Source: Xanthobacter sp. YC-JY1 (GTDB lineage: Bacteria > Pseudomonadota > Alphaproteobacteria > Rhizobiales > Xanthobacteraceae). Taken from it: a stretch of 64,000 nt of DNA. The notes under the pieces were generated by a model. It had not been told where the DNA came from. It worked only from the letters and a program-made list of their open reading frames with translations, and made no database searches. The position numbers and the translations under genes are program-made. The DNA is taken from contig NZ_CP032674.1 in NCBI RefSeq assembly GCF_021730305.1, positions 2,775,001 to 2,839,000 on the forward strand, given 5' to 3'. Below are positions 20,663-56,552 of the stretch, one piece after another; the stretch's first letter is position 1, and each line of letters begins with the position of its first letter.

Positions 20663-20746
20663 GTCGCCCTCCGGCTCGACCGGAGGGCCCATCCATCCGC
20701 TGGCCCGGCGGCGCCGTGGATCCTCCGGCCCCGCCGGAGGATGACG
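20663..20746. repeat. Paired palindromic repeat, family 1, copy A (between sufD and sufS)
   Basis: Two palindromes face each other: CCCTCCGG-ctcga-CCGGAGGG (20667-20687), and TCCTCCGG (20721-20728) with CCGGAGGA (20734-20741). They are framed by CCATCCA and GTGGAT/ATGACGG, the same frame as the copies at 48.4, 53.5 and 56.4 kb. It sits inside the suf operon. It may act as an mRNA processing or stability element. Confidence 0.7.
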
Positions 20747-30931: not shown

Positions 30932-31072
30932 AGGCTCCCTCTCCCCTTGCGGGAGAGGGTTGGGGTGAGGGGTATTTGCCCCTTTGCCCCACCAGCCGCT
31001 GAAACGGCAACAGCCCCCTCGCCCGTCTCGCGGCTGCGCCGCGATCCACCCTCTCCTACAAGGGGAGAGGGA
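30932..31072. repeat. Dispersed repeat, family 3, copy 1 (between rimO and the amidotransferase gene)
   Basis: The left part contains CTCCCTCTCCCCTTGCGGGA, then GAGGGTTGGGGTGAGGGG. The right part (about 31049-31072) returns inverted as CCCTCTCCT/AAGGGGAGAGGG. A second left part lies at 56279-56320. Such CTCCCTCTCCCC/GGGTGAGGGG repeats are common in proteobacterial intergenic DNA. It fills most of the 186-base gap between convergent genes. Confidence 0.65.
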
Positions 31073-47887: not shown

Positions 47888-47974
47888 AGCCCCTGCGTTA
47901 AGCCTGCCGCCGCCCGTGCATTGTGGCGGGCGGGGCGGCATGCCATCTTCCGGTCCCAACGACGGGAGGATTTC

Positions 47975-48262
47975 GTGCCGCATTCCATGGTCAACGGCCG
48001 CCAGATCAAGGCCGGCCGCGCCCTGCTCGGCTGGTCGCGCAAGGATCTGGCCGAGCGCACCGGCGTGACCGCCGACACCGTGAAGGTGGTTGAGCAGGAT
48101 GCCGTCACGCTGGAAGCCCTCGCCTCCACGCGCACCCGGCTGTGCGCCACGCTCGAGGCCGAGGGCATCAATTTCCTGAACGGCGGCGGCATGGGCGTGC
48201 AGATCGTTCCCAAGGACGAGGGCATCCGCGCCGAAGACCTCAACGCCTCCAACGACGACTGA
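47975..48262 (+). CDS. Small XRE-family DNA-binding protein
   Basis: A 95-residue protein with one Cro/C1-type helix-turn-helix: GRQIKAGRALLGWSRKDLAERTGVTADTVKVVEQ, then a short acidic tail. A GTG start at 47975 follows GGGAGG. Its targets are unknown. A 30-codon membrane peptide gene follows after eight bases. Confidence 0.8.
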   Translation: MPHSMVNGRQIKAGRALLGWSRKDLAERTGVTADTVKVVEQDAVTLEALASTRTRLCATLEAEGINFLNGGGMGVQIVPKDEGIRAEDLNASNDD

Positions 48263-48270
48263 CGAGCCCC

Positions 48271-48363
48271 ATGATCCTGCACAATTTCGCCGCCCGCCAC
48301 TGGATCATCGTGGCGATCATCCTCGTCATCGCGACGCTCGCCTATCTCGGCAGCTGGTCCTGA
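48271..48363 (+). CDS. Very small membrane peptide (30 residues), hypothetical
   Basis: An open frame of 30 codons just after the XRE gene. It has a short polar start (MILHNFAARHW), then one transmembrane helix (IIVAIILVIATLAYLG). Codon use is GC-rich at third positions. Such peptides can modulate membrane enzymes, but no function can be assigned. Confidence 0.45.
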   Translation: MILHNFAARHWIIVAIILVIATLAYLGSWS

Positions 48364-48406
48364 TCGGCTGATCGCGGACGCGGAAGGGCATCTCCGCAAT
48401 CACCTT

Positions 48407-48519
48407 CGTCATGGCCGGGCTTGTCCCGGCCATCCACGTGGTCAGGCCGGGCAAGCTTCCTGTGAGCATCGCGCCATCGGCCCGACGTGGATGCCCGGGA
48501 CAAGCCCGGGCATGACGGC
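48407..48519. repeat. Paired palindromic repeat, family 1, copy B
   Basis: The left unit (48407-48450) holds GGCCGGG-cttg-TCCCGGCC, framed by GTCAT and ATCCACGTGG. The right unit (48484-48519) holds GCCCGGGACAAGCCCGGGC, framed by GTGGAT and CATGACGGC. The units are inverted copies. They occupy most of the 233-base gap before the methyltransferase gene. Confidence 0.8.
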
Positions 48520-48596
48520 TTGAAGGCGGATAAAGACGCGCCTTCGCTCGTCATTCGTGCCCGATTCCCAAGCCCTCGTGGACCGGGCCCCTCCCC

Positions 48597-49262
48597 TCAC
48601 TTCACCAGCAGCAGCGCGAAGCCGTCATAACCTTTGGTGCCGACGGTCTGCACCGCCGTGGCGGTGAGGCGCGGTTCGGCGCCGGCGATCTCGTAGGTGC
48701 GGCGGATGCCGTTGACCGAGGCGTCCTCGCTTTCGGCATCGAGCACCCGGCCGGCGCGCACCACGTTGTCGCAGACGATGAGCGTGCCCGGCCGCGACAG
48801 GCGCAGCGCCCAGTCGAGATAGGCCGGATTGCTCGGCTTGTCGGCGTCGATGAAGATGAGGTCGAACGGCCCCGCCCCTTCCGCCGCCAGCACCGGCAGC
48901 GTCTCGATGGCCGGGGCGACGCGCAGGTCGATGCGCTCGGCCAAGCCGGCGCGGGCGAAATTGGCGCGGGCGACGGCGGCGTGGTGGGCGTCCGCCTCCA
49001 GCGTCACCACCGTCCCGTCCTCGGGCAGAGCCCGGGCGAGGAAGATGGTGCTGTAGCCGCCCAGCGTGCCGATTTCGAGGATGCGCCGCGCACCCATCAT
49101 GCGGGCGAAGATGTGGAGCATCTGCCCCTGCGCCGCCGAGACGCTGATGGCCGGCAGGCCCGCTTGCTCACAGGCGGCCTGCACGTCGTCGAGCACCGGA
49201 TCGGCCGGCAGCAACTGCTCAACGATGAAGGCGTCCATCTCCTCCCAGAGTGGCGAATGCAT
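48597..49262 (-). CDS. O-methyltransferase (class I SAM-dependent, CCoAOMT-like)
   Basis: A 221-residue methyltransferase. Motif I is RILEIGTLGGYSTIFLARAL (about residue 60), followed by VTLEAD, the metal-binding FDLIFIDADKPSNPAYLDWAL and CDNVVRAG. It belongs to the caffeoyl-CoA/catechol O-methyltransferase family, which methylates hydroxyls using a divalent metal. The substrate is unknown. It stands alone. Confidence 0.9.
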   Translation of the reverse strand: MHSPLWEEMDAFIVEQLLPADPVLDDVQAACEQAGLPAISVSAAQGQMLHIFARMMGARRILEIGTLGGYSTIFLARALPEDGTVVTLEADAHHAAVARANFARAGLAERIDLRVAPAIETLPVLAAEGAGPFDLIFIDADKPSNPAYLDWALRLSRPGTLIVCDNVVRAGRVLDAESEDASVNGIRRTYEIAGAEPRLTATAVQTVGTKGYDGFALLLVK

Positions 49263-53468: not shown

Positions 53469-53581
53469 GCGTCATGCCCGGGCTCGTCCCGGGCATCCAC
53501 GTCAGGCCGGCGCAACACTGCGCCGCAAGGTATCCCCGGCCAATCTACGTGGATGGCCGGGACAAGCCCGGCCATGACGGC
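53469..53581. repeat. Paired palindromic repeat, family 1, copy C
   Basis: The left unit (53469-53510) has GCCCGGG-ctcg-TCCCGGGC between GTCAT and ATCCACG. The right unit (53545-53581) has GGCCGGGACAAGCCCGGCC between CTACGTGGAT and ATGACGGC. The structure is the same as copy B. It lies between ilvA and purB. Confidence 0.8.
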
Positions 53582-53636
53582 AGCTCTTTTACCGGGACGC
53601 CTGCTCGCGCAGTCGCGGGCCGCCGAACCGCCCTCG

Positions 53637-53806
53637 CGCCCCGGACGCATGCAGCGATAGCGGAATACGAGCCGGGGGCCAGCGCAGGGGTTCGCCGAAG
53701 GCGCTTCCGAACCCGATGACCCTCGGATTTAGCTCGCTGCGCGGGTGTCTTGCGCTGGGCCCCGGATCCGCGCTCCGGCTATCGCCGTCGCTTGTCCGGG
53801 GCACAG
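53637..53806. repeat. Composite dispersed repeat, family 2, copy 2
   Basis: The left arm is 53637-53689 (CCCCGGACGCATGCAGCG, then CGAGCCGGGGGCCAGCGCA) and the right arm 53757-53806 (GGATCCGCGCTCCGGCTATC, then CTTGTCCGGGGCACAGC). The arms are diverged inverted copies around about 67 bases with TCGCCGAAGGCG. With copy C it fills the 398-base gap between convergent ilvA and purB. Confidence 0.65.
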
Positions 53807-56443: not shown

Positions 56444-56552
56444 GTCATCGCCCGGCGTGTCCGGGCGATCCACCGTGCCGCTTGAGCAATGTCCGAAGGA
56501 TTAACCAGGCCATTCCGTGGATCGCCCGGACACGCCGGGCGATGACGGCGAC
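56444..56552. repeat. Paired palindromic repeat, family 1, copy D (between two family 2 arms)
   Basis: The left unit (56444-56475) has CGCCCGGCGTGTCCGGGCG between GTCAT and ATCCACCG. The right unit (56515-56552) has CGCCCGGACACGCCGGGCG between GTGGAT and ATGACGGCGACG. Both palindromes are perfect inverted copies. Confidence 0.8.

What the first reader, a model, noticed from the sequence alone, without database searches (positions are those of the whole stretch)
48407..48519. Family 1: paired inverted palindromes with a constant frame and variable core
Four copies (20663, 48407, 53469, 56444) share GTCAT...ATCCA and TGGAT...ATGACGG frames. The palindromic core differs between copies, yet within each copy the two units match each other, as if the arms are compensating. 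This suggests selection for folding or copying as a unit, like BIME elements.
Basis: seen in the sequence. Interest (0 to 1): 0.5.

Follow-up and report, generated by a model that had tools for sequence, protein, structure and literature searches.

The report
Paired CGTC-type REP hairpins in Xanthobacter
The four sites are members of a known class of short hairpin repeats found between bacterial genes, and comparison with two sister species suggests the hairpin stems are kept intact while the DNA between them drifts.

Summary
Three of the four sites are head-to-head pairs of 29-nt hairpins (GTCAT, 7-bp arm, 5-nt loop, arm, ATCCA). The fourth (20663) is a hybrid whose left unit has another frame. 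The genome is a Xanthobacter with 141 exact units (reversed-pattern control 0) and 81 called pairs. Arms covary inside each unit, but the two units of a pair usually differ: 67 of 81 pairs are heterodimers, including 48407 and 53469. This fits the published CGTC-3 REP family. No Y1/RAYT transposase gene was found.

At 30 comparisons with two sister genomes, stems (2.7%) and frames (2.0%) diverge less than loops (11.7%) or spacers (13.5%), with sharp edges. This suggests upkeep at resident loci rather than decay, but the loci were sampled for intact units, and gene conversion is not excluded. Three loci, the reported one included, show whole-unit type switches with both arms changed together.

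In passing: a 60-bp two-hairpin element sits at CC^GG in the 3' arm of these units at nine loci in three genomes (eight exactly 60 bp).

It is a new member of a known kind, with two features worth testing.

The parts
48408..48436 (+). REP unit, stem type a (GGCCGGG), left half of a head-to-head heterodimer
   Evidence: DNA fold -13.2 kcal/mol for 48405-48441, z -5.1
48437..48487 (.). spacer of the dimer; 9 of 51 aligned positions differ from the X. aminoxidans (G002) copy at the same site
48488..48516 (-). REP unit, stem type b (GCCCGGG); in X. aminoxidans (G002) the same unit is type b' (both arms changed together)
   Evidence: strand 48405-48519 folds with z -9.1
53471..53499 (+). REP unit type b
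53550..53578 (-). REP unit type a; heterodimer with 53471
56444..56472 (+). REP unit type e (CGCCCGG)
56518..56546 (-). REP unit type e; homodimer with 56444 (this pair lies between genes called divergent)
20663..20692 (+). unit of a second frame (GTCG..CCCAT); left half of a hybrid dimer
20717..20745 (-). REP unit GTCAT-CCTCCGG..ATCCA, right half of the hybrid dimer
47921..48262 (+). called gene upstream of the 48407 site (left partner of a convergent pair)
48597..49262 (-). gene for a 221-aa protein (O-methyltransferase-like by recall), convergent partner

Best explanation
The element is a head-to-head dimer of CGTC-type (CGTC-3) REP hairpins, usually two different stem types, placed mostly between convergent or co-directional genes. 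Agreement with the published family is shown feature by feature. The inferred mechanism is that each unit acts as a hairpin (in the 3' untranslated RNA, in extruded DNA, or both). The arms and the GTCAT/ATCCA frame are kept by purifying selection at the resident site, while the loop centre and spacer drift. Units are sometimes replaced in place by another existing type. The pairs turn over between species. No Y1/RAYT transposase gene is detected in this genome, so what spreads them is unknown. Likely role (inferred, not shown): protecting mRNA 3' ends, or acting as a two-way barrier between convergent genes.
For: 141 exact units against 0 in the control. Stem of AT+7 bp, 5-nt loop and CCA tail match the published CGTC-3 description; C precedes GTCAT in 136 of 162 own dimer units and T in 23. 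81 head-to-head pairs, 67 of them heterodimers. Arm covariation 0.962 against 0.732 shuffled. At 30 syntenic comparisons with homologous spacers: stem 23/840 (2.7%), frame 12/600 (2.0%), loop 35/300 (11.7%), spacer 166/1231 (13.5%). Edges are sharp: GTCAT 0.7% against 21.7% in the 3 bases before it; ATCCA 3.3% against 10% in the 3 bases after it (ungapped). Convergent junctions 29 of 70 with a dimer against 27 of 193 without (Fisher p 5e-6). No Y1_Tnp in the own genome. 15 of 28 family genomes with at least 100 units have no Y1_Tnp match.
Against: Target loci were fetched mainly because they hold intact units, and units with more than 3 defects or with indels were not called; both lower apparent divergence. 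Scoring only units whose partner is exact in both genomes still gives stem 21/728 and frame 12/520 against loop 30/260, but this reduces the bias rather than removing it. Damaged partners do exist. At three more shared sites one unit is broken by a 1-bp insertion, a 1-bp deletion, or loss of the GTCAT frame; adding them gives stem 25/923, frame 12/655 plus five lost frame positions, loop 37/330. Twelve exact own units have no called partner. Conversion by other copies could also keep stems alike: all 5 double changes (3 loci) go between types common in the genome, and loop changes are mostly swaps between common alleles. Of 18 changed stem pairs, 9 are broken pairs. No expression data. Five dimers called between divergent genes (56444 among them) and four inside called genes do not fit a 3'-end role (home-made gene caller).
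Confidence: 0.63

Rival explanations
1. Selfish REPIN-like mobile pairs with no host role: the ends look conserved only because copies with intact ends spread, and resident copies decay neutrally. Di Nocera 2013 suggests CGTC families may be going toward extinction.
For: High turnover of sites: 17 of 47 syntenic dimer-dimer comparisons have spacers below the homology threshold, 13 of the 17 with different unit arms (two of these matches, 1331544 and 3511491, are doubtful). Of 11 own dimers whose sites were found in G009 stretches chosen by synteny or from the window, 6 showed no REP pair, 2 one intact unit with a damaged partner, 2 a second-frame unit and 1 a dimer of another type; most of these stretches were picked because no orthologue had been seen, so they are biased to absence. 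REPINs share the anatomy (passages).
Against: Shared resident copies keep stems and frames about five times better than spacers. Recent copies should have sister copies with matching spacers; only 15 of 3240 own pairs of spacers score 0.5 or more.
Confidence: 0.32
2. Homogenisation by gene conversion or template switching among copies, not selection, keeps stems alike.
For: Whole-unit switches between existing types: 2334147 (a to d, rest homologous), 2823408 (= window 48407, b to b'), 4685892 (a and b exchanged around a non-inverted homologous spacer). Position 14 of the loop differs in 30% of comparisons, mostly CTTGT/CTCGT. In 11 of 51 a+b-type pairs of two genomes the spacer appears reversed relative to the units (simple motif score, one doubtful, and some are the same locus seen in both genomes).
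Against: A tract covering both arms also covers the loop, yet loop centres diverge near the spacer rate. Conservation stops at the motif edges. Random conversion inside a pair would make a+a or b+b pairs, and only 1 of 30 such own pairs is a homodimer.
Confidence: 0.35
3. A MITE-type transposon with terminal inverted repeats moved by a conventional DDE transposase.
For: Elements of mostly 103-109 bp with inverted ends.
Against: No clean empty site of a whole dimer was found, so target duplication could not be judged; the empty sites seen lose about 39-75 bp of flank on each side too. Each end is itself a covarying hairpin, unlike a plain TIR.
Confidence: 0.1

Closest known systems
CGTC-3 REPs (Di Nocera, De Gregorio and Rocco 2013, PMC3733652)
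   Same: CGTC tag, stem of AT plus 7 bp, 5-nt loop, CCA tail, head-to-head dimers, heterodimers predominating, location downstream of genes, no dedicated transposase
   Different: Xanthobacter has 0 occurrences in that paper's text. Its figures with consensus sequences are not held. Not met with in what I read of it: divergence at shared loci, unit switches in place and the 60-bp insert.
REPINs with RAYTs (Bertels and Rainey 2011, PMC3116915)
   Same: inverted REP doublet, conserved ends, less conserved spacer whose length matters, long hairpin, compensatory changes (passages)
   Different: there linked to RAYT transposases and (by PMC3733652) GTAG-tagged; here no Y1_Tnp is found and the tag is CGTC
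BIMEs of E. coli
   Same: inverted REPs of different types (Y, Z1, Z2 named in a passage of PMC6006769)
   Different: E. coli REPs belong to the GTAG-3 family
Br-REP1 of Bradyrhizobium (Hahn 2016, PMC5082802)
   Same: CCGGAA..TTCCGG palindrome flanked by other palindromes in overlapping 3' UTRs (section 15 read); resembles the 60-bp insert found here
   Different: one short palindrome; relation not tested

Membership tests
[quoted passage not shown]
   136 of 162 own dimer units have C before GTCAT, 23 have T
CGTC-3 REP | 9-bp stem starting AT, 5-nt loop, CCA tail | tested here: met
   the A-T and T-A pairs 95.7% and 99.4% Watson-Crick, the seven further pairs 98.1-98.8% in 162 own units (units were called by frame and pairing)
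CGTC-3 REP | mostly head-to-head dimers, heterodimers predominating | tested here: met
   81 head-to-head dimers, 67 hetero; but against random pairing of all types there is no overall lack of homodimers (14 seen, 12.3 expected)
CGTC-3 REP | between convergent or unidirectional genes | tested here: met
   30 convergent, 42 co-directional, 5 divergent, 4 inside called genes of 81
CGTC-3 REP | match to the published consensus figure | not testable with these tools
   figures are not held
REPIN/RAYT system | a RAYT (Y1_Tnp) gene in the genome | tested here: not met
   0 matches to PF01797 in the own genome; 46 of 198 family genomes have one
REPIN/RAYT system | GTAG-type tag | tested here: not met
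   tag is CGTC/TGTC
MITE | target-site duplication | tested here: inconclusive
   no precise empty site of a whole dimer found
Sinorhizobium RIME1/RIME2 | sequence similarity to RIME | not tested
   recalled as a lead only

The most novel reading that the evidence does not exclude
CGTC-3 dimers in Xanthobacter are maintained two-hairpin elements with a partner rule (in the CCGGG-stem group, a with b or b' in 29 of 30 own pairs). Their hairpins are also the landing site of a 60-bp two-hairpin mini-element that enters at one exact step (CC^GG in the 3' arm), in one orientation, without evident target duplication. That would imply a hairpin-recognising, single-strand type recombination activity in a genome without any detected Y1 transposase.
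Probability: 0.33. Interest if true: 0.6.

Novelty: new member of a known kind. Interest (0 to 1): 0.4.

Why it matters
The 2013 description left two questions open: why heterodimers are preferred, and whether CGTC repeats, lacking a transposase, are dying out. The divergence test at shared loci speaks against simple decay in this genus. Unit switches at otherwise homologous loci, and a second element nested at one fixed place in the hairpins, give concrete handles for finding what acts on them.

Tried and rejected
Weakly against a classical terminator: no terminator-like site in 47900-48700, but only 0.4 were expected by chance, so this says little. No known Rfam family at gathering scores in the window. 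A Y1/RAYT gene as present-day mover is not supported: none in this genome; across 198 genomes a weak link (median 38 units with a Y1 match against 26.5 without, p 0.034, not corrected for genome size or kinship); of 20 Y1 loci, one holds four units and one a weak unit.

Unsupported: that heterodimers exist to prevent the long foldback. RNA energies favour the long foldback in 66 of 67 heterodimers and 14 of 14 homodimers. A general ban on homodimers fails: type e pairs with itself (12 pairs), and outside the CCGGG-stem group homodimers are as frequent as by shuffling (13 seen, 12.7 expected; G002 6 against 6.9; G009 4 against 4.4). In the CCGGG group there is 1 of 30 against 11.9 expected (G002 1 of 23 against 8.8). 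In another genus (g41), 19 of 19 pairs that I read by eye from the capped listing (about 20 places a genome; spacing 40-110) are heterodimers; 2.8 homodimers expected, 3.3% of shuffles as low.

Led nowhere: orientation of heterodimers against replication direction (no bias; replichore split guessed from GC skew of the fetched blocks); precise empty sites of whole dimers; a first gene caller that chose wrong strands (replaced). A first rate estimate (stem 11/784) was biased because type was defined by the 5' arm; one search replaces it.

Limits: own units beyond position 3.44 Mb came only from two stem-restricted patterns, so pairs with unusual stems there are missed. G002 fetches covered most of the roughly 100 hits listed of 138 (60 stretches); G009 fetches were 20 stretches by REP hits and 13 by predicted synteny, of 145 hits. 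The junction search had a reversed control about as rich as its matches in most genomes, so I use it for nothing.

Full report
What is there. The window is G000:C1:2775001-2839000 of a 5.39 Mb single-contig genome. The best hit of a flanking gene in the named species collection is Xanthobacter aminoxidans at 90%. Sites 48407, 53469 and 56444 are head-to-head pairs of 29-nt units: GTCAT, 7-nt arm, 5-nt loop, arm, ATCCA. Site 20663 pairs one such unit with a unit of a second frame, GTCG..CCCAT. The window holds 7 units by a loose pattern, against 0.27 expected. The genome holds 141 exact units, with none for the reversed pattern. Single units fold with z between -3.5 and -5.1, and the 48405-48519 strand with z -9.1.

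How many and of which kind. Around the places listed I fetched stretches and called 81 head-to-head pairs. By 5' arm the main kinds are a+b 21, c+d 19, e+e 12 and a+b' 8; 67 of 81 are heterodimers. Covariation is inside units: 60 distinct units have 96.2% Watson-Crick stem pairs against 73.2% +- 1.5 when 3' partners are shuffled (calling required at least 5 of 7 pairs). Within the CCGGG-stem group only 1 of 30 pairs is a homodimer (11.9 expected, 0 of 5000 shuffles as low). Over all types there is no lack of homodimers (14 seen, 12.3 expected), because type e pairs with itself. So pairing is specific rather than simply hetero.

What it is called. The features match the CGTC-3 REP family of Di Nocera et al. 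2013 (I read abstract, Background, Results and Discussion; figures not held). That paper says the heterodimer preference has no obvious explanation and that CGTC repeats lack a dedicated transposase. My searches for later work on CGTC repeats, or on such repeats in Xanthobacter, listed nothing closer (search listings only, open-licence papers only).

Divergence at shared loci. By flanking DNA there were 47 syntenic dimer-dimer comparisons (33 with G002, 14 with G009; 41 own dimers). 30 of them have homologous spacers in the same orientation. There, spacer divergence is 166/1231, loop 35/300, stem 23/840 and frame 12/600. By position the edges are sharp: the three bases before GTCAT 21.7%, GTCAT 0.7%, arms 1.9% and 3.6%, loop 11.7%, ATCCA 3.3%, the next three bases 10% (ungapped). 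Conditioning on an exact partner in both genomes changes little. Three further shared sites, missed at first because one unit is damaged, bring the sums to stem 25/923, frame 12/655 with five lost frame positions, loop 37/330. The loci were sampled mostly because they contain intact units, so the contrast is likely inflated to some degree. The loop and spacer serve as internal controls at the same loci.

Changes in place. Of 18 changed stem pairs, 9 are broken in one of the two genomes, 4 differ on one side with both forms paired (G-C against G-T), and 5 (three loci) changed both sides. One is the reported site: unit b at 48488 is b' in X. aminoxidans. At 2334147 the left unit is a in one genome and d in the other, with the rest homologous. 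At 4685892 a and b are exchanged around a non-inverted spacer. These all switch between existing types, which points to replacement by other copies rather than stepwise compensation. At 4860762 the pair may be inverted in place, but the spacer score (0.23) is below my threshold of 0.38. In 17 of 47 comparisons the spacers fall below that threshold, 13 of them with different unit arms. At the 48407 site G009 carries a second-frame dimer.

Context and mover. Dimers favour convergent junctions (29 of 70 against 27 of 193, p 5e-6) and avoid divergent ones (3 of 70 against 32 of 193, p 0.007), by a home-made gene caller. By the gene positions, 48407 and 53469 lie between convergent genes, 20663 between co-directional ones and 56444 between divergent ones. 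No Y1_Tnp gene was found in this genome, and 15 of 28 family genomes with at least 100 units have none at E 0.001. 191 of 198 family genomes contain the unit pattern.

A second element. Of 12 exact own units without a called partner, five have a partner broken by another palindromic element. A scan for units split by 50-79 bp gave 16 lines; ten of them are a 60-bp insert of this element, and removing it leaves a unit with at least 6 of 7 pairs: own 278220, 3443333, 4672440 and 4716512, G002 L244, L261, L274, L278 and L279, G009 L294; the other six lines are unrelated. The fifth own case, 1893305, is degenerate. L244 is the orthologue of own 4716652, and L294 of own 3443475. That makes nine distinct loci in three genomes, eight with an exact 60-bp insert. 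The insert is two 24-nt hairpins (GGAA..TTCC) joined by 12 nt, at CC^GG in the 3' arm in the same orientation in all ten lines, in units of types a, b', c, d and e. L261 is filled in G002 and empty in the own genome at 159135. A pattern for the hairpin hits 28 places in the own genome (reversed control 4); 17 of them make up ten copies, five in these units and five of a variant (mostly CGAA- or TGAA-framed) in the loop of a CCCTCTCCC..GGGAGAGGG repeat; the other 11 places, all at two mismatches, were not examined. Host group and insert subtype go together, so some cases may be copies of a composite rather than separate insertions. Insertion sequences that enter REPs are known (PMC1525189, abstract). 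One search aimed at a nested palindromic mini-element returned nothing relevant.

Verdict. A member of a known repeat class, with a testable case for maintenance at resident loci and a side observation that may be more interesting than the finding itself.

Noticed in passing
L328 (278266), L330 (3443353), L339 (4672460), L340 (4716533), L336 (1893187); G002 L244, L261, L274, L278, L279; G009 L294: A 60-bp element of two 24-nt hairpins (GGAA..TTCC) sits inside CGTC-REP units at CC^GG of the 3' arm, same orientation; L261 is filled where the own genome (159135) is empty.
   Followed up: partly
L329 (2335787), L332 (4541239), L334 (4701081), L337 (2006597), L343 (4853073): A variant of the same two-hairpin element, mostly CGAA- or TGAA-framed, sits in the loop of a CCCTCTCCC..GGGAGAGGG repeat.
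   Followed up: partly
window 30936-31072 and about 56300: Copies of the CCCTCTCCCCTTGCGGGAGAGGG palindromic repeat.
   Followed up: no
window 53630-53805: A dispersed repeat of about 175 bp with many copies in this and related genomes.
   Followed up: no
window 48271-48363: Short open frame of 30 codons reading like a single membrane helix, translated by eye; alignments with several genus members run to its stop codon.
   Followed up: no
L203 about 2744 (G009), L189 about 4368 (G009): At the sites of the 48407 and 56444 dimers the sister genome carries dimers of the second frame (GTCG..CCCAT).
   Followed up: partly
loop position 14 of the units: This position differs in 30% of orthologous units, more than the spacer rate, mostly T/C.
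   Followed up: no
L218: One Y1_Tnp locus in another genus has four CGTC units within about 0.9 kb of the gene match.
   Followed up: no
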